Source: Chloroflexota bacterium (GTDB taxonomy: Bacteria; Chloroflexota; Anaerolineae; VGOG01). From it: 64,000 nucleotides of DNA. Of the stretch, positions 15,934 through 62,939 are shown in pieces. The translations under genes and the position numbers were made by a program. The notes under the pieces are model-generated. The model had not been told where the DNA came from. It did not search any database and worked only from the letters and a program-made list of their open reading frames with translations. Location of the stretch: assembly GCA_030611885.1 (NCBI GenBank), contig JAUWOY010000002.1, positions 1-64,000 of the forward strand, in the 5' to 3' direction. Position 1 is the first letter of the stretch. Every line of letters starts with the position of its first letter.

Positions 15934-16021
15934 CGCACCTTGGGCGAATAAGGCCAGGCAGCACCTTTAGGACTCGTAATCCTTGGCATTGGTGTAGGTT
16001 GGAATATGCTCAGCCAGTGCC

Positions 16022-16150
16022 GCCTAACCAGTCGCTGGTGTGCCCTGCTAAGCTGTCGCCTGCAAGCCGGGAGCGATTACACATTCGTGGTGATACTCAG
16101 TAGATTGTAGGAGCTCGCAGTGGATCGTCAGATTCGCTGTCTAGTTGCTG
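16022..16150 (+). other. Candidate degenerate attC-like site
   Basis: GCCTAAC at 16022, poorly conserved R' (GTTGCTG) at 16144; length 129 bp. Confidence 0.35.
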
Positions 16151-16171
16151 GATAGACGGAGGTGAAAGGCA

Positions 16172-19009
16172 ATGATTGTAGCCAACTATGATAGATCATG
16201 GGGTTACCTTTCCCATGAGCATAGGAGACTGGATGAAGAAGTCCAGCAGTTACTAAACAATTACGCGACTGGGCTACTAGAGGATTTGGCGTATGCCATT
16301 ATCGGAACGTATGGCGTTGGGAAAACCCAGTTTCTCTATCACGTTCACCAATGCGCCCTTAAAAGAGATATTGTTCCCTTGTACTTCCTTGCAGAAGATT
16401 TGTTTAGGGAAGTAATCACCGATGATGGCGAGGCATGGCTACCTGGGACTGTCTATAGTCTTATTGAAGGGAAAATCTCACAAGTACTGGATGGTCTATC
16501 CAACAAAGACGCTTCAGAGATTGGGAGGATCTTGGATCCTAGAGGAAAAATGAGGAAAGACTCCCCAAGAGTAATTGCGGAGGTCATAGACAAGTTCTCA
16601 GGAAGAGACTGCCAGAACATGCCAGTCCTATTGCTAGTTGATGAGTTGGAGGGTCAATATGGGATTCTTCAAGAGAAAGTCGAGACAATGGATAGAAGTC
16701 CTCTGCGAGACTGGCTTGAAAGTAGAACTCATCTTAAGTTCTTGGCGTTTGCCCCTGCTGGCATCTATGAACTTGGCGGTGCAGATAGGGGCCGAGTTAA
16801 GAGAAAGGTAATACCCCCCGCAGATGTCAAGTTCGTGCGAGACGCACTAATTGGAGATGCAGGTAGAAGCAATGCTTGCTGGTGGCTTTCCCGAGGGAAA
16901 GCGAGGCAGCTTTTCAAGACAGCTGAAACCCTTGAAAGATTGGGGAGTGAGCACATTCAAGATGCAGCAAGGGCCTCAAGAGTCATAAAATTAGAACTCG
17001 ATCCGATTGGTCAGCCACCGACGGAAGTACCACCAGCAGTTACAGACAAGATAAGTCCTTCAAAAATCCCCTTCTTGCTGAACCTAGCACCTATAGCCGG
17101 AGGAGGCAAAAGACAGTACATCATTGGGGTCCAGAGATTGGATACTGGAAAACTTGCCGAGAAGCTGATAGATGCGTTTGGGATAGGAAAGGACAATGCA
17201 ATACTAATCTCTGAATATTTCAAGAGGACGGTGAGTGCTCTATCTGATGCCGAATGGCTCACATACATCGATCAGGAGGATTTGCCAGAATTGTTCTGTC
17301 TTGTCTTGGACCATTTTCTTGAATACGAACATGGAAGTCCAGAGCTCTCAGAGACGTTCGGAGAAATACTAAGCCTATACGAAAGAAGTAAAAAAGAGCC
17401 TGCGGGAATGTATGGAACTATTGGAACATTGTGGGAACTAAGAGAATCTAAGTTTCAGTTACCACTCTCAGTAGAAGAAATACGAGAAGCATTCCCGTTT
17501 CCAACAATGAACCCAATGGTGAAGCATTATGTACCAGGTGAGATGAAGAAGCAATGGGAAGGGCGAGACTTACCTTTATGGAAGTGGGCAGAGGGGAATG
17601 TGACCATTCTCTTCTTTGCTTCAGCAAGAGATTTCGCAGCATATTTGGATACGGATGAATTCCTTTCGTCGTCTTTACCAGATGGGAAAGGGGTTTTGTC
17701 CCTTCTGCCATACGGAGAGGATTTGAAGAAAGAAGAACGGAAGCCTCTTTTCAGGTGGTTGGAGGAAAATGGTAAACTAAAAGTAATAAAGCTACAGCAT
17801 TTGCTCACTGACTTCCTGTTTAGTGCTTCAGGAGAACTTGCTGATATTCCAGGGAACCTGGACGAGACCTTGGAAGGTTTCAGGGAGGACAAAGGAGATA
17901 TTCTGCTGTCACGCAAAACGGAGATCTATTACAAAGCTCTGTGCGATACAACGAAGGACGAACTACCCAGGCCCAGGGTGATTTATAGAGGAGATCCCCC
18001 AGATGCTGCTACTGTGTGGGGAAAAACTCAAATGGGACATAGATCGATTGCGGTGAGTGGAATTGCTTTGGCATTCTATACTCTTAAACCAGAAGAACAA
18101 AACCTTCTGGTCAGCTTAAGAGAGCTTTTCAGAGGCGGTAAGGAAGGTAGAGGCATAGCTGATCTCCGTCATTTAATCTCTGGCAGAGGGGCCCCTGGCA
18201 GGGGAGGGCACACAAGGCTGCCGGATCGTCTATTACCGTATAGTGAAAAAGGAACCGGGATAAGAAACACAGAATACGTAGAAAGATTGAGATCCTATTG
18301 GCGGAGTGAGGAGATGGACAGGTTAGTGAAACTAGCGCGTATCCTTTCTCTCAATGACTTCTTGAAACTGCACCAGGACGAAGACGTAAACAGATTGCTT
18401 GAAGCTCTTTGGAGAAGCGTGAGAAAAGACTTTGAAGCAGAGGATTTAGACGTTTTCATCGCGGAACTGGAGCAGAACATTATCCCCGTTCTGCAGGACT
18501 GCCAGGTGTTGGATGAACAAGGGAGCGACTTTGACTTAAGTGGAATTGATTTTGGCGATTATGAGCGGCTAGTGAAATCTCTTCAAGGCTTTGAAAAGTT
18601 TTTGGAAGTGGTCAAGGCATCAGTTGAAGCTTCTCCCCTTGTTCACTCCATTGTATCAATTCTTGCTGAGACAATAACTGATATCGATGGTAACATAAGA
18701 ACTCTGAATGACTTGTCTAGCAAAGCCAAAAGGGCGATAGAGGATCTCAAAGAATCTGCTCAGTATCTAAAAAGAAACTTCTGGGAGTATGAGAGAGCTG
18801 TCAAATTCATCGGGCTAGAAGAGAAGGATATCAAGCAGATTATAGAGGAGAAACTGCGAATGAGTGGCACCCCTGACTTGCAAGCACTGGAAGAATCAGC
18901 ACGAGAGAGGAAAGGGTTCCTAGATGATGTCTCCACGTCACTCTCAAAATTAGATCGCAAATTGAGGGATTTAGGGGATTGCTTCGCAAGCATGAGAGGA
19001 GTTGAGTAA
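16172..19009 (+). CDS. Large P-loop ATPase of unknown family
   Basis: Walker A GTYGVGKT, Walker B PVLLLVDELEG; C-terminal coiled coil; AT-richer than flanks. Confidence 0.8.
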   Translation: MIVANYDRSWGYLSHEHRRLDEEVQQLLNNYATGLLEDLAYAIIGTYGVGKTQFLYHVHQCALKRDIVPLYFLAEDLFREVITDDGEAWLPGTVYSLIEGKISQVLDGLSNKDASEIGRILDPRGKMRKDSPRVIAEVIDKFSGRDCQNMPVLLLVDELEGQYGILQEKVETMDRSPLRDWLESRTHLKFLAFAPAGIYELGGADRGRVKRKVIPPADVKFVRDALIGDAGRSNACWWLSRGKARQLFKTAETLERLGSEHIQDAARASRVIKLELDPIGQPPTEVPPAVTDKISPSKIPFLLNLAPIAGGGKRQYIIGVQRLDTGKLAEKLIDAFGIGKDNAILISEYFKRTVSALSDAEWLTYIDQEDLPELFCLVLDHFLEYEHGSPELSETFGEILSLYERSKKEPAGMYGTIGTLWELRESKFQLPLSVEEIREAFPFPTMNPMVKHYVPGEMKKQWEGRDLPLWKWAEGNVTILFFASARDFAAYLDTDEFLSSSLPDGKGVLSLLPYGEDLKKEERKPLFRWLEENGKLKVIKLQHLLTDFLFSASGELADIPGNLDETLEGFREDKGDILLSRKTEIYYKALCDTTKDELPRPRVIYRGDPPDAATVWGKTQMGHRSIAVSGIALAFYTLKPEEQNLLVSLRELFRGGKEGRGIADLRHLISGRGAPGRGGHTRLPDRLLPYSEKGTGIRNTEYVERLRSYWRSEEMDRLVKLARILSLNDFLKLHQDEDVNRLLEALWRSVRKDFEAEDLDVFIAELEQNIIPVLQDCQVLDEQGSDFDLSGIDFGDYERLVKSLQGFEKFLEVVKASVEASPLVHSIVSILAETITDIDGNIRTLNDLSSKAKRAIEDLKESAQYLKRNFWEYERAVKFIGLEEKDIKQIIEEKLRMSGTPDLQALEESARERKGFLDDVSTSLSKLDRKLRDLGDCFASMRGVE

Positions 19010-19011
19010 AA

Positions 19012-20040
19012 ATGGAAGACTTGGGCGACGTCATTCAAAGGAAAACTTGGACTGTAGAGGAATTCTTGTCACAACTGGATGAATTGGAGGAAGACGCAAA
19101 GAGATTATCCCATGAAGAAAGAGAGAGAATCCCTGAATTCTCAGGCGATTGGTCGGAAAAGAGCGTGAGGAAGCATCTTAGTGAGGTAGCAAGGGCAGTT
19201 AAAAATCCGATCAAATTCAAGAATAAAGAAAGACTAGAGCAGATAGGTGTAAGAACGGACGGGATAGCCGATGATGTCTTGGGAGATACTTCCGGACTTG
19301 ACAAGGTAGTGGAACTGTTCCTCGAAGTAAGAGAGATAAGTGAATCCTTGATGCCTGGAGACTATCTGGCAATCTGGCTTAAAGAAGGAACAGAGAGTGC
19401 TAGACAGAAGCTTGAGGAAGTTGTGAATGCGAAACCAGCATTCGAGCGCGTACTTGGAAGCGAGGTTATTGAAGAACTTGGATCGGAGCTTTTAAGACGG
19501 TCAATGGAAGATGTCAGCTTCCTGAGTGAGGCTGAGACCGCAATTTTGAGATTCACACGGTTAGATGGTTTCGGGGTTGTACTAGATTGGGGGAGTGATT
19601 CCGATGAATTCCTTATCGGCCTCAAAGAATCGTGGAATGGGATTCAGCGAATTCAGGAGGAATACGGGGTTTCACGAGAAGAAATTCAGGAAGTATTAGG
19701 TGGCGAGACACTGCTGGAAACAAGTAGTCTACTGGAGAAAATGGACCAGGAATACTCAGAGAGAAAGAGAAAGCTGTCAGAGGAGTGGCAGACATACGCT
19801 ATTACCTTGGAATCACTTGGCGAAACAGTATTGGAACCTCCTGAAACCCTTGGAGAGCTTGGAGAGGCCATTGAGAATCTACGAAATGAGTGTCTTGAGC
19901 GTTTGGGAGAATCAGGCCTCAGCTTGCTTAGATTTATAAAGGGAAAGGATGAATTCCCAGACATCGGGATAGAGGAAATCAAAAAAGCCTTGGAGGCACT
20001 CCGTCCTTTCTTCTTGAAGTCATTGACGGAGGTAAGCTAG
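19012..20040 (+). CDS. Coiled-coil-rich protein of unknown function
   Basis: 2-nt gap after ATPase gene; Glu/Lys-rich helices. Confidence 0.75.
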   Translation: MEDLGDVIQRKTWTVEEFLSQLDELEEDAKRLSHEERERIPEFSGDWSEKSVRKHLSEVARAVKNPIKFKNKERLEQIGVRTDGIADDVLGDTSGLDKVVELFLEVREISESLMPGDYLAIWLKEGTESARQKLEEVVNAKPAFERVLGSEVIEELGSELLRRSMEDVSFLSEAETAILRFTRLDGFGVVLDWGSDSDEFLIGLKESWNGIQRIQEEYGVSREEIQEVLGGETLLETSSLLEKMDQEYSERKRKLSEEWQTYAITLESLGETVLEPPETLGELGEAIENLRNECLERLGESGLSLLRFIKGKDEFPDIGIEEIKKALEALRPFFLKSLTEVS

Positions 20041-20436
20041 ATGCCAGAAGTGAGAGAAAGGGACGTTTATAATGCCCTTTTGAAGTTCAAGGGCGAAGGC
20101 TCTATTGAGATAGGAGAGGCTGAAATCCGTCTCTCCCTGGCACCTGTAGACGTTCATACTGTTGGTAGACCTGACAGCATCTTATGGCTTGAGGTTTCAT
20201 TAGGCTTATTCGGACAAGACCTGAAGCTTCGAATTCCAGTTCCAATAGAGGCTGAAAAGAATGGTATTGCAGACGCGATGGACGACCTAGAGGGATTTGT
20301 CGCGAGAGGTCAGTATATCGCTGAGATACCCATGTTGGTTGTTGCTGAAGCAGGATATGGAAGGAGAGAAGTGCGTAGAGATTTTCCCGTGGAATTTACG
20401 CTAACTCAGATTCCTGTGAGGCGATTAAAGGAGTAG
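20041..20436 (+). CDS. Small protein of unknown function
   Basis: Begins on the base after the preceding stop; 131 aa. Confidence 0.75.
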   Translation: MPEVRERDVYNALLKFKGEGSIEIGEAEIRLSLAPVDVHTVGRPDSILWLEVSLGLFGQDLKLRIPVPIEAEKNGIADAMDDLEGFVARGQYIAEIPMLVVAEAGYGRREVRRDFPVEFTLTQIPVRRLKE

Positions 20437-20446
20437 ATAGACCGAA

Positions 20447-20971
20447 TTGAGAATAGTAAGAAGTGTAACCCAGGATGAGGTTTGGGATCATTGGTTCAGA
20501 ACTGAGAACTATGGATGTTATAAACCTTTGACAGGTGAGAGCTTGAAGCAGGAAATTGAGAATTGGCGTTCTGACATAAAGTCGCCCTTGCCTTCCGATA
20601 CCCGTTGGCATGAAGCAGTGATTGAACAGGCGGATGTGAGCCGTCTCTTCATTATTTCTTCTGACGATTGGGCTGACATATCAGGATACACCTTTTTGGT
20701 GAGTTTCGTTGCTGAAAATCTAAACGCTGCATTCTCCAACAAGGGTAGCGATATAAAGAAAAAGCTATCTTTTCTGGAGAGTGGTGGTGCTCTTGATACA
20801 AGGCTTATCCTTGTGTCAGATAAGGTTTCCGGTCCGTTTACGGTAATAGAGGGTAATCGACGAGCAGTGGCGCTACTGTGTTTGAATAAGTTGGTTGAAA
20901 CAAGGATCTATCTCGGAATTTCAAGGGGGATTACGGACTACGTTTGGTCAAGGTATGCGTACAGGAGTTAA
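20447..20971 (+). CDS. ParB/Srx-like domain protein (TTG start)
   Basis: GPFTVIEGNRRAVALLCLNKL resembles ParB-like GNRR motif. Confidence 0.6.
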   Translation: MRIVRSVTQDEVWDHWFRTENYGCYKPLTGESLKQEIENWRSDIKSPLPSDTRWHEAVIEQADVSRLFIISSDDWADISGYTFLVSFVAENLNAAFSNKGSDIKKKLSFLESGGALDTRLILVSDKVSGPFTVIEGNRRAVALLCLNKLVETRIYLGISRGITDYVWSRYAYRS

Positions 20972-21129
20972 GCATGCGAGAGGATGAGAAATCTCGCAGG
21001 CTCAGTTGGTTAGCACCCCATCGCAGCTTATTGGGAGGGTCAAGCTAATTCCAAAGGGAAGCCGACTCCTCCCAAGTCGCAGACCTGTAAGCGACTTGCT
21101 GAAAGAAGGATACCGCAGGGATCCTGGGC

Positions 21130-21260
21130 CGCTAACACGTCGCTGCAGCCGACTGTGCTATCGAGTATCCTGTTGAGGGCGCGTCGCCTTTGCAGCGCTT
21201 CAACTCAAGTATCGGCACACTGCGGCAGCCGCAAGGCGGCTTAGCTCGGGGCCGTTAGGC
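21130..21260 (+). other. attC-like site (131 bp)
   Basis: CGCTAAC-ACGTCGCTGCAGCCGAC ... GGCGGCTTAGCTCGGGGCC-GTTAGGC. Confidence 0.75.
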
Positions 21261-21353
21261 CGCTTCCCACGAATTGGCATTATCTACTCTTGCGACGTAT
21301 CTTGTAGGTAGTCTCCCGCTCTCGTGTTGTAAGGCGGTTGGGACTACCCATAA

Positions 21354-21752
21354 ATGGATGCAGAATTCATAGCAAGGAGAATGAAGATGCAAACTGTCAA
21401 ACAAGTGCTAAAACCAGACTGGAGAAAGCTTTTTCTGTTTGCCATCTTCACCTCAATAGCGGTAGGCGGCAAGATTCAGGCGTGGGCTTTCTCTGATGTG
21501 CCTCCAAAGCCCCCTCTCTATGATTTATTGCGGCCCTTCCCCATCTGGCCAATGTGGATGTTTCTACTGATGCCTCTCGCCTTGTTGACTTTGCCTCTAA
21601 GGTTCATCGGCCTGGATGTGATGGCTGGCCCTCCTTGGTTGTTTGTGGTAGCCAACATAATCTACTTTTACTTGCTCTCTTGCCTGATAATTACTGGTTT
21701 TGACAAATACAAGGCCAGATTTGGAAGATCACGAGAAGAAATGACAAGATGA
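21354..21752 (+). CDS. Small membrane protein, cassette gene
   Basis: Three hydrophobic segments; lies between two attC-like sites. Confidence 0.6.
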   Translation: MDAEFIARRMKMQTVKQVLKPDWRKLFLFAIFTSIAVGGKIQAWAFSDVPPKPPLYDLLRPFPIWPMWMFLLMPLALLTLPLRFIGLDVMAGPPWLFVVANIIYFYLLSCLIITGFDKYKARFGRSREEMTR

Positions 21753-21803
21753 CATTCATGGAAGCAGGGAAGATCTTAGATGATTTCGTGATTTGGCACA
21801 GTG

Positions 21804-21933
21804 GCCTAACAAGTCGCTGAAGCCGACCTGCTAATCGGGAGTCAAACTGTTGCCTGTCTTGGTTGTGTGTCGTCTTTCTGATTGTTGGGCACAACGTTAA
21901 ACCCGGCGGCGGCTGAGCTCCAGTCCGTTAGGC
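21804..21933 (+). other. attC-like site (130 bp)
   Basis: GCCTAAC-AAGTCGCTGAAGCCGACC ... GGCGGCTGAGCTCCAGTCC-GTTAGGC. Confidence 0.85.
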
Positions 21934-21968
21934 CGCTTCTGACCGATGATTGAGGACAGGGAGGAGCA

Positions 21969-22730
21969 ATGAAAAGCACCAAGATAGAGATTGACCTGCC
22001 ACCGGTTTCGGTGATAATTCCTGCCTACAATGAGGAGAGGTGGATTGAAACGACCATTTCTTCCGTTTTGGAAAGCGGTTTTCCCTGCGAGGTAATCGTC
22101 GTTGACGATGGTTCAACGGACCGAACTCCCCAAATTATCAGAGGTTTTGGGACGGAAATCAAAGTCATCACCCACCCGGTCAATAGGGGCAAGGGAGCGG
22201 CAGTTGTCTCAGCGCTCCAAAAGGCATCGGGGGAGATTGTGGTTTTCTGCGATGCTCATCTATTGGGCTTGAATCGATACCATTTGTTGACTTTGGTCTT
22301 ACCGCTGATTTACAGTTCGGCCAAGGCGGTCTTGGGCGAATGTGTGCCGGAAGAGTTCTCTTTAGCCCGTGCTTTCTCTCCCACCATGATTTTGACAGGT
22401 CAGCGAGCCTATTACAAAGAAGACTTGCTGCCTTTGGCAAAAGAGATGGAAGGACTCGGTTACGGGGTAGAGACGTTTCTATTCAATCGGTTTCCTCGAG
22501 ACAGGACGGCGGTTGTTTTGCTTCGGGGAGTAACGCATCTGATAAAGAAGGATACTTCCTCTCCCACGGCTGCCACACTTGCCTATTTGAGGGAGGTGAA
22601 GGAAATTCTTGAGACGCTGGTCAGCATTGAAGGATTAGCGCCCAAAGAACTGAGGCAATTGAAAAAGATGGTTTCCTCACTGCTAGCTAAATATGGGGCC
22701 ATCGTTGAAAGGAGCGGGAAAGCGGCCTAA
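21969..22730 (+). CDS. Family 2 glycosyltransferase, cassette gene
   Basis: VSVIIPAYNEERWIETTISSVL...VIVVDDGSTDRT; stop codon lies inside attC R''. Confidence 0.85.
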   Translation: MKSTKIEIDLPPVSVIIPAYNEERWIETTISSVLESGFPCEVIVVDDGSTDRTPQIIRGFGTEIKVITHPVNRGKGAAVVSALQKASGEIVVFCDAHLLGLNRYHLLTLVLPLIYSSAKAVLGECVPEEFSLARAFSPTMILTGQRAYYKEDLLPLAKEMEGLGYGVETFLFNRFPRDRTAVVLLRGVTHLIKKDTSSPTAATLAYLREVKEILETLVSIEGLAPKELRQLKKMVSSLLAKYGAIVERSGKAA

Positions 22731-22856
22731 CCAGAGCTTGCACCTGACGCGGCTGAGCTGCGGCCCAATTGGAAGCCGCACCCGCTTTGAGGGTAGCTTT
22801 TAGGCGAGGGTGATTTCCACGCACCCGCGCGGCGGCTGAACCCGGGGCCGTTAGGC
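22725..22856 (+). other. attC-like site (132 bp)
   Basis: GCCTAAC-CAGAGCTTGCACCTGACGC ... GGCGGCTGAACCCGGGGCC-GTTAGGC. Confidence 0.85.
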
Positions 22857-22885
22857 ACGCGAACCCAAGGAAGGGAGATATTGTG

Positions 22886-38224: not shown

Positions 38225-38286
38225 ATTTTGGATACCTTTTCGGCGTGGTCAGAATTTGGCCTGAGAGGGTGAGGAATGTCCAGCCG

Positions 38287-38418
38287 CACTAACGGCTCGC
38301 GGTTCAGCCGCTTGGCGGTTGCGGCGTGAGCACCGTCGCCAGAAAGTGAACTAAAATGCGGGTGAGAAACTTGAAAAGCGCGCCGATTAGCCAAGTCGGC
38401 TGCAACCACTTGTTATGC
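38287..38418 (-). other. attC-like site (132 bp)
   Basis: On minus strand GCATAAC-AAGTGGTTGCAGCCGAC ... AGCGGCTGAACCGCGAGCC-GTTAGTG. Confidence 0.8.
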
Positions 38419-38457
38419 CGCCTTTCACCTTGAAAGCGTAAAACGTTTCACGCTGAT

Positions 38458-40591: not shown

Positions 40592-40795
40592 ATGGAACCA
40601 AGACCCAAGAAACTCCTCGATCAGGTCCGTGACGCCATCCGCCTCAAACACTATTCCATTCGCACCGAGCAGGCCTACATCGGCTGGATCAAACGCTACA
40701 TCTTCTTTCACGATGTCCGCCATCCGGCCGAAATGGGCGTTGCTCCAGGCGACGGATTTGATAATCCGTCGCGAGCGAGAGAATGTCACCGCTGA
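40592..40795 (+). pseudogene. 3'-truncated integron integrase (tyrosine recombinase) N-terminus
   Basis: KKLLDQVRDAIRLKHYSIRTEQAYIGWIKRYIFFHDVRHPAEMG closely resembles the IntI N-terminal domain; catalytic domain missing. Confidence 0.8.
40749..40772. repeat. Perfect 10-bp-stem hairpin at the intI truncation point
   Basis: gcgacggatt-tgat-aatccgtcgc. Confidence 0.85.
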
Positions 40796-52689: not shown

Positions 52690-52855
52690 TGTTAGGCGGA
52701 CGAGATTTCCGCCTAATACACCCTAGAGGGATGGCTATGTGGACAAATGTCCACCTAATATGCCAGATTGGGGATATATGTGGAAAAACGTCTGCCTAGT
52801 ATCCCAAATCGGGTGACTAGGTGGACAGATGTCCAGATATTAAGCAGTTGGGCGG
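52690..52855. repeat. About four tandem ~41-45 bp palindromic units (gtggacaaatgtccacctaatatnccanattgggnnata)
   Basis: Read directly; related copy at 14862-14935. Confidence 0.7.
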
Positions 52856-52879
52856 CAAGTAACCAAGAAAGGAAGGTAG

Positions 52880-53626
52880 ATGATGAGAATCCTCGATCGA
52901 CTTCTTAGGCGCAAAGCCGTTTCCGATGAGCAACCACCAGCGTTTGGCGGCAATCTATTCCAATGCAGACGTTGCGGGTCGCTTGCACTCGGAGCATGGG
53001 GGGGTTATCATGTTTTCTACTCAGAAGCCAGAGGGACATGTAAGAAGGATTGCGACTTTGTCCCAGTGTCAGAGAAAAGGGCACTTTCCTCATCCGGCAT
53101 GTCTGATAAAGAGCTCCTGGAAAAGCTTTACAGCATTCTGAACCGGCCAGATCTTATGAAGATTAGCGACCATCCGAAGCCTTTGCTCGAGGAGGTCGAG
53201 CGACGGCTGGGGCTAGGTAAGCCTGCAACAGAGGACTTGCCGGAATTCCAGAGGCAGTCCACGACTGATGTGCATGATGCGGTCCGTCTCCTTCGTGATG
53301 GTGCACTGCCAGCCACGCCCATCATTAGTAGGGCAAGAGTGGAGGCTGAATACCAGGACATGGTGTCCGCTTGGGGGTGCCGGGGTCTCAAGGGAGGAAC
53401 ACCGCAGGACATTGCTGACACATTGCGAAGGAACCTGGAGAGAGATTCAAAGCTCCCGCGGTTTAGGAACTTCTCCGTGCAAGTAATCGCCGATCAGTAC
53501 TGCGCACAGGTCTACTCAAGTTTTGAGAGGGAACCTGGAGCGAGATATGCGACGGCTACTGCATACCGTATCTGGCGCACCTCTGATTCCGTTTTCTTCT
53601 GTGGCTCCAAAGACGCTATTCTCTGA
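52880..53626 (+). CDS. Hypothetical protein with N-terminal Cys-pair motifs, cassette gene
   Basis: CRRCGSLAL...CKKDC; RBS aaaggaagg; followed by attC-like site. Confidence 0.6.
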   Translation: MMRILDRLLRRKAVSDEQPPAFGGNLFQCRRCGSLALGAWGGYHVFYSEARGTCKKDCDFVPVSEKRALSSSGMSDKELLEKLYSILNRPDLMKISDHPKPLLEEVERRLGLGKPATEDLPEFQRQSTTDVHDAVRLLRDGALPATPIISRARVEAEYQDMVSAWGCRGLKGGTPQDIADTLRRNLERDSKLPRFRNFSVQVIADQYCAQVYSSFEREPGARYATATAYRIWRTSDSVFFCGSKDAIL

Positions 53627-53701
53627 ATACGTCAGGCGGCGACTTATTGTGCGGTGATTACTTGTGTTCCAAACAACCTTTTCGGCTTAAAGCAAAGTGC
53701 C

Positions 53702-53827
53702 GCCCAACAAGCGGTTGCAGCCGACCGCCTTCGGCGCGGTATATGTGTGCCGCGAGCCAGCCCGCGCTTTGGTTTTTGAAGGGAGTCTTGCCAGAGTCGG
53801 CGGCGGCTGAACCGCAGACCGTTAGTG
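53702..53827 (+). other. attC-like site (126 bp)
   Basis: GCCCAAC-AAGCGGTTGCAGCCGACC ... GGCGGCGGCTGAACCGCAGACC-GTTAGTG. Confidence 0.8.
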
Positions 53828-53908
53828 CGGCTCAGTATCATCGAACAAAAGGTTCGCCACTGAACAAGTTTCGCGCCATCGAGCACTGATCAAAGAAAGG
53901 AGGCTACG

Positions 53909-54499
53909 ATGTCTTTCAGGTCAAGTCATTCCGCTGCTTTGGAACGTGTGAAGAAAGTCGGCTCTATGCAGTTCATCCTACACAATCTGCTGTCCTGCAT
54001 TGTGACAGGGTCTATTTTGTTTCTTCTGGTTCACTTCGTCGGCAGGTTAATTACTCCCATCGGAACAGCAGTAGTTCTTGTGATCGTGATTGTACTGCCT
54101 CTTGCGTACACAGTCATCCATCCAAAAGCTGGATTAGGAACAAATCTTCCTCGTAAACTAGGATTCCTAGAGTTGGTGTTGGCGGCTGTCATTGCCTTAA
54201 TGAGTAATATAGCTTCTCTTCAGTTGGCCTTTAGCAGAAGAGACGACATTCAGAGCGATATTTTGCGAAAGCGGATATGGGAAGGCTTCGATAAGAGCCA
54301 AAAGCGCTTTTCTGGCACGAGTGTGCTGGCTAAACTGCTAATGTTGGTTGTCTCCACGCTGCTTGTGGAATTATTCTGGCCGGGGTACTTGCATAATCTA
54401 CTCGTCACAGCAGCTATTGCTATTCCATTTAGCGTTCTGGATGCACTGCTGTTCCAACGTATCGTGTACCCGGCAGTCCAAAGGGAAATAGAGCAGTAA
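53909..54499 (+). CDS. Four-TM membrane protein, cassette gene
   Basis: Hydrophobic segments; between two attC-like sites; RBS aaaggagg. Confidence 0.65.
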   Translation: MSFRSSHSAALERVKKVGSMQFILHNLLSCIVTGSILFLLVHFVGRLITPIGTAVVLVIVIVLPLAYTVIHPKAGLGTNLPRKLGFLELVLAAVIALMSNIASLQLAFSRRDDIQSDILRKRIWEGFDKSQKRFSGTSVLAKLLMLVVSTLLVELFWPGYLHNLLVTAAIAIPFSVLDALLFQRIVYPAVQREIEQ

Positions 54500-54595
54500 G
54501 GACTCCGACACTGCCAAACTATAGTTGTGCCATATGGCACAATCTAGGACTTGCACGTCACTACATCAGTGGTATTGAATTCGCCGTAGAGAGCC

Positions 54596-54726
54596 GCCTA
54601 ACATCCATTGGAGCCGACCCGGCCCTTTCGCGGCTCCCAATCAGCTTGCGCTAGCGGCGTTGGGCGTAGGTTGAGTGCTCTTTGGTTATCGAGGTCCGGG
54701 CCGGGCGGCTCAATTCAACGTTAGGC
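54596..54726 (+). other. attC-like site (131 bp)
   Basis: GCCTAAC-ATCCATTGGAGCCGACCCGGCC ... GGGCCGGGCGGCTCAATTCAAC-GTTAGGC. Confidence 0.85.
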
Positions 54727-55068
54727 AGACTCGAAGCCCGTTTGAGCGGCGCAAAGCCGACCGTGAGCTTTCTGTCTCCAAGCGTCCTCGGACGCCCAAC
54801 CGAAAGAGCCGCCCTGTGATCAGGGCGGCTTTGCTTTTGGCCCACCGTGGCAACGCCGTCTTTGGCCGCTGTTACAGAGGCCGACGATCTCCTCACCCAC
54901 CACCGCCAGCAGGTTCAGTTCCGGGCGAAAGCGGGGCAGGTTGGCCCAGTGGAGCCAATCTTCCATATTTTGTCAAATGGCGGAAAAGTGATATAATGCA
55001 GTTACTTTGATCCCGGTGGGATGATTGCCCTCTTGGAAGTTAGGTGAAGAGGGGGAGGAGTAGAGACA

Positions 55069-59968: not shown

Positions 59969-60667
59969 CTATGAGGTCAGCATCTTCTCTGGCTTTTGCA
60001 AAAGCAGCAAGTTCAGCAAAAACATACATCCCGCCAAGGTTAGAAGAGCCAACTTGTTGCTCTGCCAGATCTTCTCGTCATGGGTGTATGAGGCACTGAA
60101 TAAGTAGATGTACCGCAGGATCGGCTGTCTAGCCAACTCTCTAAAGGCGAGATTGAGCATCCAATAGCCGATGGACACTACGTATCCAACCAGCGAGCTA
60201 GCGGTTAGATGGGCAACCGCAGCTCCCATTAATCCCAGAAAAAGTGTTGGGCTTATGGCGATCAGCCATAGCTTCACCATATCCAGAATCGGGCGCGATT
60301 GGTAGCCAAGTAGAATGACTGTTGCTATCATAGCCGCGATGTAGAATTGAACCAGCAAAAACCGGGTGATAAATATGTGTACAAGCGGCGTGGCAGTTGC
60401 GCCGATTATGGGAAGTGTACGGTACTCACACTCTTCAGCTATCACCGGTGTTAACAGCAATGCGCTAATGGGCGGGAATGCCATCTCCAAGAGTAATACC
60501 AGGTTGATCCATGTCAAGACAGGCGAGTTCGACCGGGATATCAAGCGTGAGCCAACATACAATACAATGCCCGCTGGGACCAGATATGCCCACGAAAAGA
60601 GAAGCCGACATTGGTACAGCAACAAAGTCAGTCTCGATTGTACCTCGATCATGCTATTTCTCGTCAT
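59969..60667 (-). CDS. ABC-2-like membrane permease
   Basis: Multi-TM protein in an ABC operon. Confidence 0.55.
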   Translation of the reverse strand: MTRNSMIEVQSRLTLLLYQCRLLFSWAYLVPAGIVLYVGSRLISRSNSPVLTWINLVLLLEMAFPPISALLLTPVIAEECEYRTLPIIGATATPLVHIFITRFLLVQFYIAAMIATVILLGYQSRPILDMVKLWLIAISPTLFLGLMGAAVAHLTASSLVGYVVSIGYWMLNLAFRELARQPILRYIYLFSASYTHDEKIWQSNKLALLTLAGCMFLLNLLLLQKPEKMLTS

Positions 60668-62939
60668 AGCTCATATCCAAATAAGGGTCAAACAGCTTTG
60701 CTAGCGCTTCACCGCACACTTCAGCGACAATTTCTTGAAAATCAGCCAAAGTTGCCTGGCCGCCGGAATAAGACTGTAGGAAGTATGTAATCGTGTGATC
60801 AAAGGCTTGCTTGCCAGCCCGCTCTCGTAACTGGGCAAGGGTGGCGATGATCTGATTGATACGGGTGTTATAGCTGGAAGGTGATGAGCCTAATCCGAAT
60901 TCGCTCAGCCTTTGTTGTTGGTCATGTACGAATCCGTGCGGACTATCCACAGCCTCGACGGCTAGTTGTTGCCGTATGGACATCTCACGAGCCATTAAGT
61001 TCTCGTCGAAGTACAAATCGGCTAACAGTGAGGTAAAGTAACCGGTTAGACCTTCCAGCAACAGGTTGTGTTGCGGCGGAGTCGGACCACCTGGTAACTG
61101 TGGCCAACCCGGAAAGGTAGGATCTGCAAATTGGATCTGGCCCAGCCACCATTGTCGGATGACGTGCTCTGCCAAATCCCGAGAGGCCACCAAGTCATTG
61201 TTTAGTCCTCCAAATTGATCCTTAAGTTCGCCGAAGGTCTCCCGACCGAGGCGGAAGTGAGGTAGTAGCAACTCTTCAGGCAACAAAAGCAGATTTCCAC
61301 AGTATGCAATTCTTTTGGTCAAAGGCACTTCGGCTATTACCAGTGCGTTTCGTTGCTTTCCCACCAACCTATCCATATCATTCACAATGTTGTTCACACG
61401 CACTGCAAATGGTACCACAATATCTCTATGCCCGGGAATGCCATAGCTATACAACTCTTTCGAAGCATCGAGCAATACATAATGGGATGTTGCAGCTAAG
61501 GCAACTTGAGGCCACCCTGCAGACGAAGACCAGTGATAGGTCACGCCTGTCGCCGTCTGCTCCTTTAGCTCGGTTGAAGCCACAGCAACAAAGCCCTTGG
61601 GAACCGTGATCTTCACCTCATGTGGCCCGTTGGTATGATGCCCACTTCCGCCTTCCACGATAGGATACCACCAGGCTTCCGGTTTTAGATAAACCATGTC
61701 CTGACCGATGTATCCCGGAACATATCCAAAGTGTGTTCCATAGCGCTGATAATCAACGTGCCTTACTTGAAAGCGGCCAGCATATTCAACTACGAGGGTG
61801 ATAGTTTCGCCAAAATGCAAGTGGGTTGGCATGGAGATAAGCAGGGTCGCATCATTAACTTGCTTCCAGTCTGGTTGCAGTCCGGTTCTGCCTTCACGGA
61901 CTGTCTTTACTCGAAATCCAGGTGGCACTTGGATAGAAAAGGTGGAAACTGGCTTTGACATAGCTGATGCTATGCTGAAAGTAGCCATGCCCTCAATGCT
62001 CCCCCTGTCTGGATATACTGTGGCCTCGAGTGCGACTGTTTGCACCTTGGTTGCAGCTTTCCCGCCATCGGACCAGAGGCTGAATGGCTCACCTGAGGAA
62101 CTGGTAGCCAGCTTGATGGTTTCCTTAAAGTGAAAGAGCGCCCAGCCCAGTAGGCAGAGCCCTCCAATAAGCAGTACATTACACACCCACTTACCGTATT
62201 TGGCCTCTACGCTTCGCCCCTTACGATTCAGGTATATGTAAATCGTTAACACAACCAGGCATAAGCCGGCTGCTAAGTAGAAAGCGCGATTGGCCAACAA
62301 CATTGGCCAGTCAGGACCAAACACGATCATGTCAGAGGTGAAAACAGTGCTGACTGAATAGTTAAGGATATCTGTGATTGAGCCAAAGGCGATCAAGGTT
62401 AGCAACCAGTAGGCGATGGCTAGCGGATACAAGTACAATGGCCGGGGCAAGAGAGCGGTTAAACAGAGATAGAGGCAGGTCACATAGGTCAGAGTCGGAA
62501 TCGCTCTGACCATGACCACTTTAGCGTATAACATGAGCGATTCCAAGGAGAGATAATGGGGGAAACATACCAAGAATTGTCCCGTTGTGTGTATAAACAC
62601 CATGGTGCAAAGCATTGCCAACAAGCCAAGAATCTTACCACCGATGTAGATACTGGCTGTGACAGAAGTACTCCATATTAAGTCCTTGGCACGATTCCTT
62701 CGATCACGATTCAAAGCATCAGCCACCGGGAAAACAAGAAGGAGGCTCAAGAAAGTGGAAAGCCCTTCACCTATCCCGGAAAGCTCTATCGGTGAAAAGG
62801 TTGTATTACCGGCATGGGAGATATAAGGAGCTATACTTCGGAGGGCAAGAAGAAAGACAATGACCCAAAAACTGAGCCCTCTTATCTGCAACTTCCACTC
62901 GTAGCAGGCTATTGCGCATATAGCGCGCAGCGTTTTCAT
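60654..62939 (-). CDS. ABC-2-type permease fused to M1-aminopeptidase-like domain (zinc motif lost)
   Basis: N-terminal multi-TM; C-terminal LAEHVIRQWWLGQ...LLLEGLTGYF resembles M1 layout without HExxH. Confidence 0.65.
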   Translation of the reverse strand: MKTLRAICAIACYEWKLQIRGLSFWVIVFLLALRSIAPYISHAGNTTFSPIELSGIGEGLSTFLSLLLVFPVADALNRDRRNRAKDLIWSTSVTASIYIGGKILGLLAMLCTMVFIHTTGQFLVCFPHYLSLESLMLYAKVVMVRAIPTLTYVTCLYLCLTALLPRPLYLYPLAIAYWLLTLIAFGSITDILNYSVSTVFTSDMIVFGPDWPMLLANRAFYLAAGLCLVVLTIYIYLNRKGRSVEAKYGKWVCNVLLIGGLCLLGWALFHFKETIKLATSSSGEPFSLWSDGGKAATKVQTVALEATVYPDRGSIEGMATFSIASAMSKPVSTFSIQVPPGFRVKTVREGRTGLQPDWKQVNDATLLISMPTHLHFGETITLVVEYAGRFQVRHVDYQRYGTHFGYVPGYIGQDMVYLKPEAWWYPIVEGGSGHHTNGPHEVKITVPKGFVAVASTELKEQTATGVTYHWSSSAGWPQVALAATSHYVLLDASKELYSYGIPGHRDIVVPFAVRVNNIVNDMDRLVGKQRNALVIAEVPLTKRIAYCGNLLLLPEELLLPHFRLGRETFGELKDQFGGLNNDLVASRDLAEHVIRQWWLGQIQFADPTFPGWPQLPGGPTPPQHNLLLEGLTGYFTSLLADLYFDENLMAREMSIRQQLAVEAVDSPHGFVHDQQQRLSEFGLGSSPSSYNTRINQIIATLAQLRERAGKQAFDHTITYFLQSYSGGQATLADFQEIVAEVCGEALAKLFDPYLDMSYDEK

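What the first reader, a model, noticed from the sequence alone, without database searches (positions are those of the whole stretch)
16172..20971. Uncharacterised four-gene ATPase system carried as an apparent ~5 kb integron cassette
Four genes are essentially contiguous (gaps of 2, 0 and 10 nt): a 945-aa P-loop ATPase (GTYGVGKT; LLLVDELEG), a 342-aa coiled-coil protein, a 131-aa protein and a 174-aa protein with a ParB-like EGNRRAVAL motif. None matches a family I recognise. The set is bounded by attC-like sites (16022-16150 degenerate; 21130-21260). A large AAA/STAND-like ATPase plus coiled coil plus ParB-like protein on a mobile cassette is compatible with an anti-phage or anti-plasmid system. 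Function is inference only.
Basis: partly seen in the sequence, partly recalled or inferred. Interest (0 to 1): 0.8.

Follow-up and report, generated by a model that had tools for sequence, protein, structure and literature searches.

The report
Mobile three-gene STAND-ATPase module, undescribed
A compact set of three adjacent genes (a large ATP-driven protein, a helical partner and a small nuclease-like protein), matched by none of the reference libraries searched here, recurs intact in unrelated bacteria and in a related form on archaeal plasmids, and here sits among the attachment sites of a decayed gene-capture element, which makes it a candidate immune system against viruses or plasmids.

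Summary
The four ORFs are real. The 945-, 342- and 131-aa genes form a unit that recurs in the same order: complete in L008 and L009 (68% identity in the ATPase) and L048 (25%), and with a truncated ATPase start in L010 (52%). A divergent four-gene version sits on two haloarchaeal plasmids: the ATPase domain (hhalign E 6e-14) and the 131-aa protein (E 4e-6) are homologous; the helical genes between only correspond in position. L008 and L009 are 89% identical exactly over the three genes, with unrelated flanks. The fourth, 'ParB-like' gene is absent from every bacterial relative and its own relatives stand alone. Gene 1 is a P-loop NTPase with weak, consistent similarity to the STAND/ORC/DAP3 clade. 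Gene 3 shows the order and acidic residues of a PD-(D/E)XK nuclease but lacks the canonical lysine. No Pfam, NCBIfam, PADLOC or PHROGs family is convincingly matched. Three attC sites lie at 21125-22858; the left attC is a degenerate half-site; the genome keeps integron-integrase remnants. So: a mobile module in or beside a decayed attC cluster. Counter-invader function is the best guess but is inferred; no phenotype or usable structure is available.

The parts
16157..20441 (+). Conserved three-gene module: the block shared with L008/L009, from about 15 nt before the ATPase start to the stop of gene 3
   Evidence: blastn: window 16157-20436 against L008 and 16159-20441 against L009, 69% DNA identity; nothing alignable beyond
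16172..19009 (+). Gene 1: 945-aa P-loop NTPase, N-terminal STAND/ORC-like domain (residues about 1-260), long C-terminal region predicted mainly helical
   Evidence: AF2 model too poor to use (pLDDT 40.6)
19012..20040 (+). Gene 2: 342-aa fast-evolving partner, probably helical; syntenic counterparts in all bacterial relatives
   Evidence: 36-56% identity in close relatives; no detectable homology to the L048 or haloarchaeal counterparts
20041..20436 (+). Gene 3: 131-aa protein, PD-(D/E)XK-nuclease-like: invariant P44-D45, E70 after the following strand, then helix and strand; lysine of ExK absent
   Evidence: secondary structure only; archaeal homologue E 4e-6; L048 E 1.8e-15
20447..20971 (+). 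Gene 4: 174-aa protein (TTG start) with EGNRRAVAL motif, passenger, not part of the conserved module
   Evidence: absent after gene 3 in L008, L009, L010, L048; relatives stand alone in L040 6120-6719 and L041 6321-6932
16017..16135 (+). Degenerate half attC site at the left edge (R'' GCCGCCTAACCAGTCGCTG, decayed R')
   Evidence: 6.0 bits, E 0.04 in 501 bp with filters off
21125..21262 (+). attC site, right edge of the candidate cassette
   Evidence: covariance model R1, 108.5 bits (training member)
21799..21935 (+). attC site after the next cassette (132-aa ORF 21354-21752)
   Evidence: 122.6 bits (training member)
22720..22858 (+). attC site after a glycosyltransferase cassette (21969-22730)
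   Evidence: 121.1 bits (training member); Pfam Glycos_transf_2

Best explanation
A mobile three-gene module, most likely a counter-invader (phage or plasmid) system. Shown: conserved gene order, purifying selection, transfer as a unit, P-loop NTPase, nuclease-like motif order in the small protein. Inferred mechanism: the STAND/ORC-like ATPase assembles on, or is triggered by, foreign DNA or a foreign protein through its long C-terminal region and the fast-evolving helical partner (the part expected to meet the target); ATP-driven assembly then licenses the small PD-(D/E)XK-like subunit to bind or cut DNA. Because the lysine of the ExK motif is missing, gene 3 may be a divergent nuclease or a catalytically dead DNA-binding subunit.
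For: Same three genes in the same order in L008, L009, L010 and L048 at 68 to 25% ATPase identity; ATPase and small protein also homologous and in the same order on two haloarchaeal plasmids. L008/L009 89% identical only over the module. Patchy: a handful of carriers among the roughly 1,000 genomes searched, as for horizontally moving systems. Mobile contexts: attC cluster here, attC-like site before the ATPase in L008 (0 of 1500 shuffles), transposases next to L010, L039 and L048 (read by eye), plasmids. STAND-clade leads: ATPase_2 2.7e-5, nSTAND_NTPase5 1.5e-4, mS29/DAP3 1.5e-4. Gene 2 evolves fastest (against 65 and 69). Integrons are recognised stores of antiphage systems (Darracq 2025, cited in PMC12409362).
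Against: No defence family matches; no defence island recognised around any copy; two AF2 models unusable and Foldseek therefore uninformative; ExK lysine absent; mobility and patchiness fit other accessory functions too; no experiment.
Confidence: 0.5

Rival explanations
1. A mobile-element maintenance module (plasmid partition, replication or segregation): an ORC/DnaA-like ATPase with a helical adaptor and a small DNA-binding protein that keeps the carrier replicon.
For: ORC4, DnaA and helicase-loader hits among the weak structure-library matches; both archaeal copies are on plasmids.
Against: Bacterial copies lie in chromosome-like contexts (L010 next to gatB-, fmt- and queA-like genes, read by eye; the window carries ordinary metabolic genes); only 2 of 72,556 plasmids carry a detectable copy; a PD-(D/E)XK-like subunit is not usual in such modules.
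Confidence: 0.2
2. A BREX-like or other ORC/Cdc6-ATPase restriction derivative: a reduced BrxC-type scaffold plus nuclease-like subunit that has lost methyltransferase and PglZ.
For: Domain plan (N-terminal STAND/ORC ATPase, middle alpha+beta stretch, long helical C-terminus) parallels BrxC as described in PMC12839542; Pfam BrxC_BrxD is the weak hit shared by most members (4 of 7).
Against: Direct hhalign with E. coli HS BrxC gives only the P-loop, E 0.014; no match to PglX, PglZ, BrxA or BrxB; no methyltransferase or phosphatase seen in any copy.
Confidence: 0.15
3. An accessory chromosomal or metabolic module unrelated to conflict, spread by capture in integrons and insertion sequences.
For: Integron cassettes carry many unrelated functions; neighbours here are a glycosyltransferase, PIG-L and glyoxalase genes.
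Against: STAND-type ATPase with a nuclease-like subunit; fast evolution of gene 2; rarity.
Confidence: 0.15

Closest known systems
STAND/ORC-type NTPases (DAP3/mS29, ATPase_2, nSTAND_NTPase5, NACHT)
   Same: P-loop and Walker B region; best weak matches of the N-terminal domain
   Different: All below the curated cut-offs; own signature hhVDExExxY..L, P(L/M)R, AF, N..WW; no known STAND effector fusion
BREX (BrxC/PglY) and DUF499 systems
   Same: Large protein with N-terminal ORC/STAND ATPase and long helical C-terminus (PMC12839542)
   Different: No sequence relation beyond the P-loop to E. coli HS BrxC; no methyltransferase, PglZ or helicase; has a PD-(D/E)XK-like subunit
PD-(D/E)XK nucleases
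   Same: Helix-strands-helix-strand order, PD then E 25 residues later
   Different: Lysine of ExK replaced by E, Q or A; no Pfam or PDB match
Integron gene cassettes and CALINs
   Same: attC cluster with single-gene cassettes, integrase remnants only
   Different: The candidate cassette is about 5 kb with four genes; left attC decayed

Membership tests
Integron gene cassette | attC at the 3' end | tested here: met
   21125-21262, 108.5 bits with own model
Integron gene cassette | attC or attI at the left edge | tested here: inconclusive
   half-site 16017-16135, 6 bits; L008 has a good attC-like site in the same place
Integron gene cassette | active integron integrase in the genome | tested here: not met
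   only fragments: C97:25373-25816 (148 of 315 positions) and window 40613-40738 (42 positions); other hits are general tyrosine recombinases below the cut-off
STAND/AAA+ NTPase | Walker A and acidic Walker B | tested here: met
   GxxGxGK and DExE invariant in 8 sequences
STAND/AAA+ NTPase | library match above curated cut-off | tested here: not met
   best ATPase_2 24.5 bits against cut-off 33.2
PD-(D/E)XK nuclease | conserved PD and strand-end E | tested here: met
   P44-D45 invariant in 7 sequences; E70 invariant in the four close bacterial sequences and matched by eye in L048 and archaea after a one-residue shift
PD-(D/E)XK nuclease | ExK lysine | tested here: not met
   E, Q or A at that position
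PD-(D/E)XK nuclease | fold | tested here: inconclusive
   AF2 pLDDT 46, Foldseek no match at 0.001
BREX | BrxC, methyltransferase and PglZ | tested here: not met
Known PADLOC defence system | clear profile match | tested here: not met
   gene 1: LmuB 0.011, SspC 0.007 only; gene 4: PD-Lambda-5_A 3e-4 over 40 residues

The most novel reading that the evidence does not exclude
An undescribed immune system shared by bacteria and haloarchaea: a STAND-type ATPase with a fast-evolving helical sensor and a divergent PD-(D/E)XK effector, transferred as one block and at least once housed as an unusually large integron cassette.
Probability: 0.35. Interest if true: 0.78.

Novelty: new variant of a known kind. 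Interest (0 to 1): 0.6.

Why it matters
If it is a defence system, it adds a family that the detectors tested here miss entirely, with a cross-domain distribution, and a multi-gene system of about 4.3 kb moving in integron context would widen what gene cassettes are known to carry. The three-gene boundary found here tells an experimenter exactly what to clone.

Tried and rejected
Single-sequence scans of genome and viral contigs with gene 1 found nothing; the window's own phylum gave only false hits with the first profile (L005, L006). Six scans of viral contigs found no relative. AF2 for gene 1 and gene 3, then Foldseek: unusable. Fusion of haloarchaeal genes A and B in gene 1: plausible by eye, but hhalign of the C-terminal half is no better than reversed sequence, so not claimed. 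Homology of gene 2 to its distant syntenic counterparts: not detectable. BrxC membership: rejected beyond the P-loop. Lamassu LmuB and type I specificity hits: weak, in helical low-information stretches, rejected. Four-gene system: rejected. Rfam: no family in the window, so attC was tested with a model of my own.

Full report
What is in the sequence. The block is A+T-richer than its surroundings (0.43-0.48 against about 0.6 G+C). No Pfam, NCBIfam, PADLOC or PHROGs model is matched above its cut-off or convincingly, and no PDB sequence.

Relatives. tblastn of gene 1 against plasmids gave one weak haloarchaeal hit (Natrialbaceae AArc-T1-2, 25% over residues 3-260), and that protein led to a second, Haloquadratum walsbyi C23 plasmid PL100, at 41%. 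Both carry four contiguous genes: ATPase, two probably helical genes, and a gene of 136-139 codons. An alignment of the three ATPases then found three bacterial loci: L008 and L009 (both 68%, each a whole contig of about 5 kb) and L010 (52%, a Dehalococcoidia contig). A profile including these found L048 in another genome of the L010 class (957-aa frame); a slightly earlier profile had found a 3'-truncated copy, L039, in the window's own class. L008, L009 and L048 have complete ATPase, helical and 132-140-aa genes in that order; L010 has the same three but its ATPase lacks the first 23 residues and abuts what reads as the end of an IS3-type transposase. L008 and L009 come from small contigs binned as Micrarchaeota and Bacillota; their binning may be wrong, so I draw no host conclusion from them.

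The unit is three genes. L008 and L009 are 89% identical from 14 nt before the ATPase start to the end of gene 3 and share nothing outside; the window aligns to both over 16157-20441 and no further. Gene 4 is absent from all of them. Two distant relatives of gene 4 (26-27% identity) stand alone beside unrelated genes (L040, L041). Gene 4 is therefore a passenger, although it now sits 10 nt behind gene 3. dN/dS between L008 and L009 is 0.19, 0.26 and 0.10, so the three genes are kept as proteins.

Homology strength. hhalign of the four bacterial ATPases against the archaeal pair gives E 6e-14 over residues 4-244, and against L048 1.8e-25 over residues 3-749. Gene 3 gives 4e-6 against the archaeal pair and 1.8e-15 against L048. 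Reversed-sequence controls gave nothing. Gene 2, and the C-terminal half of gene 1 against the second archaeal gene, are not detectably related; there the argument is position only.

Nature of the proteins. Gene 1: in eight N-terminal sequences GxxGxGK, DExE, Y163, L166, P177, A192-F193, E200, G202 and A204 are invariant. Weak matches agree on the STAND/ORC/DAP3 side of P-loop NTPases: ATPase_2 2.7e-5, nSTAND_NTPase5 1.5e-4, DAP3, AAA_16, BrxC_BrxD; mS29/DAP3 1.5e-4, DnaA and ORC4 in the PDB (RecA, KaiC and ABC proteins also appear there, so the P-loop itself contributes much of the signal). A 2026 analysis describes BrxC as an N-terminal ORC/Cdc6 ATPase with DNA-binding domains and a long coiled coil (PMC12839542). 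The plan is similar, but direct comparison with E. coli HS BrxC finds only the P-loop. Gene 3: predicted helix, four strands, helix (low confidence), PD just before the third strand and E just after the fourth, then a strand IPMLVV by eye. This is the order of a PD-(D/E)XK core; the ExK lysine is not there. 'Coiled coil' for gene 2 does not exceed shuffled sequence in a simple heptad test.

Integron context. A covariance model from five sites in the window recovers them and, independently, a sixth at 38284-38423 on the minus strand (69.5 bits, E 6e-16); a genome-wide search gives 16 matches, clustered on several contigs. Integrase remnants are at C97:25373-25816 and window 40613-40738. The stretch 21125-22858 is thus part of an attC cluster without integrase (CALIN). 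On the left only a half-site remains. L008 has an attC-like site (bases 30-142) ending about 50 bp before the ATPase start; 0 of 1500 shuffles reach its score. L009, L010 and L048 have no site that the model sees, but the model is built on this genome's own family of attC sites, does not see the L008 site either, and would miss others. So attC association is well supported for the window and L008 and unproven elsewhere, where insertion sequences or plasmids are the visible carriers.

Interpretation. Shown: a transferable, selected three-gene operon with a P-loop NTPase and a small protein of nuclease-like motif order, in bacteria and, divergently, in haloarchaea. Inferred: that it acts against invaders. 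The reasons are the ATPase class, the nuclease-like subunit, the fastest evolution in the middle gene, rarity and patchiness, and mobile carriage; chromosomal integrons are already known as stores of antiphage systems. None of these is specific, hence about even odds. Scope: about 1,000 prokaryote genomes in three groups, one usable scan of the genome collection, six of viral contigs; absence elsewhere is not shown. The organism was not determined beyond a bacterial-type 16S hit and the tool's statement that its order holds only three genomes in the set.

Noticed in passing
window 40613-40738: First 42 residues of an integron integrase, cut short just before a murE-like ORF; a longer remnant (148 of 315 positions) is on contig C97:25373-25816 with an attC-like match nearby.
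   Followed up: partly
window 53697-54728: Second attC pair around a 196-aa ORF (53909-54499), preceded by a 248-aa ORF (52880-53626); neither has a Pfam match.
   Followed up: partly
window 38284-38423, minus strand: Isolated attC on the opposite strand, found independently by the model at 69.5 bits.
   Followed up: no
window 52693-52860: Short degenerate repeats of GTGGACAAATGTCCACCTAATA type between a GTTAGGCGG and a GTTGGGCGG motif; perhaps remains of an attC array.
   Followed up: no
window 20447-20971; L040 6120-6719; L041 6321-6932: Small family of stand-alone proteins with an EGN/EGH-R motif and a conserved N-terminus (MRxI..S.DE), no Pfam family above cut-off; DUF6387 matches the N-terminus weakly (6e-4).
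   Followed up: partly
L008 4665-5057: Antitoxin-like reading frame and the start of an RNA 3'-phosphate cyclase-like gene behind the module, read by eye only.
   Followed up: no
window 60654-62939, minus strand: 761-aa ORF without a Pfam match at 0.001.
   Followed up: no
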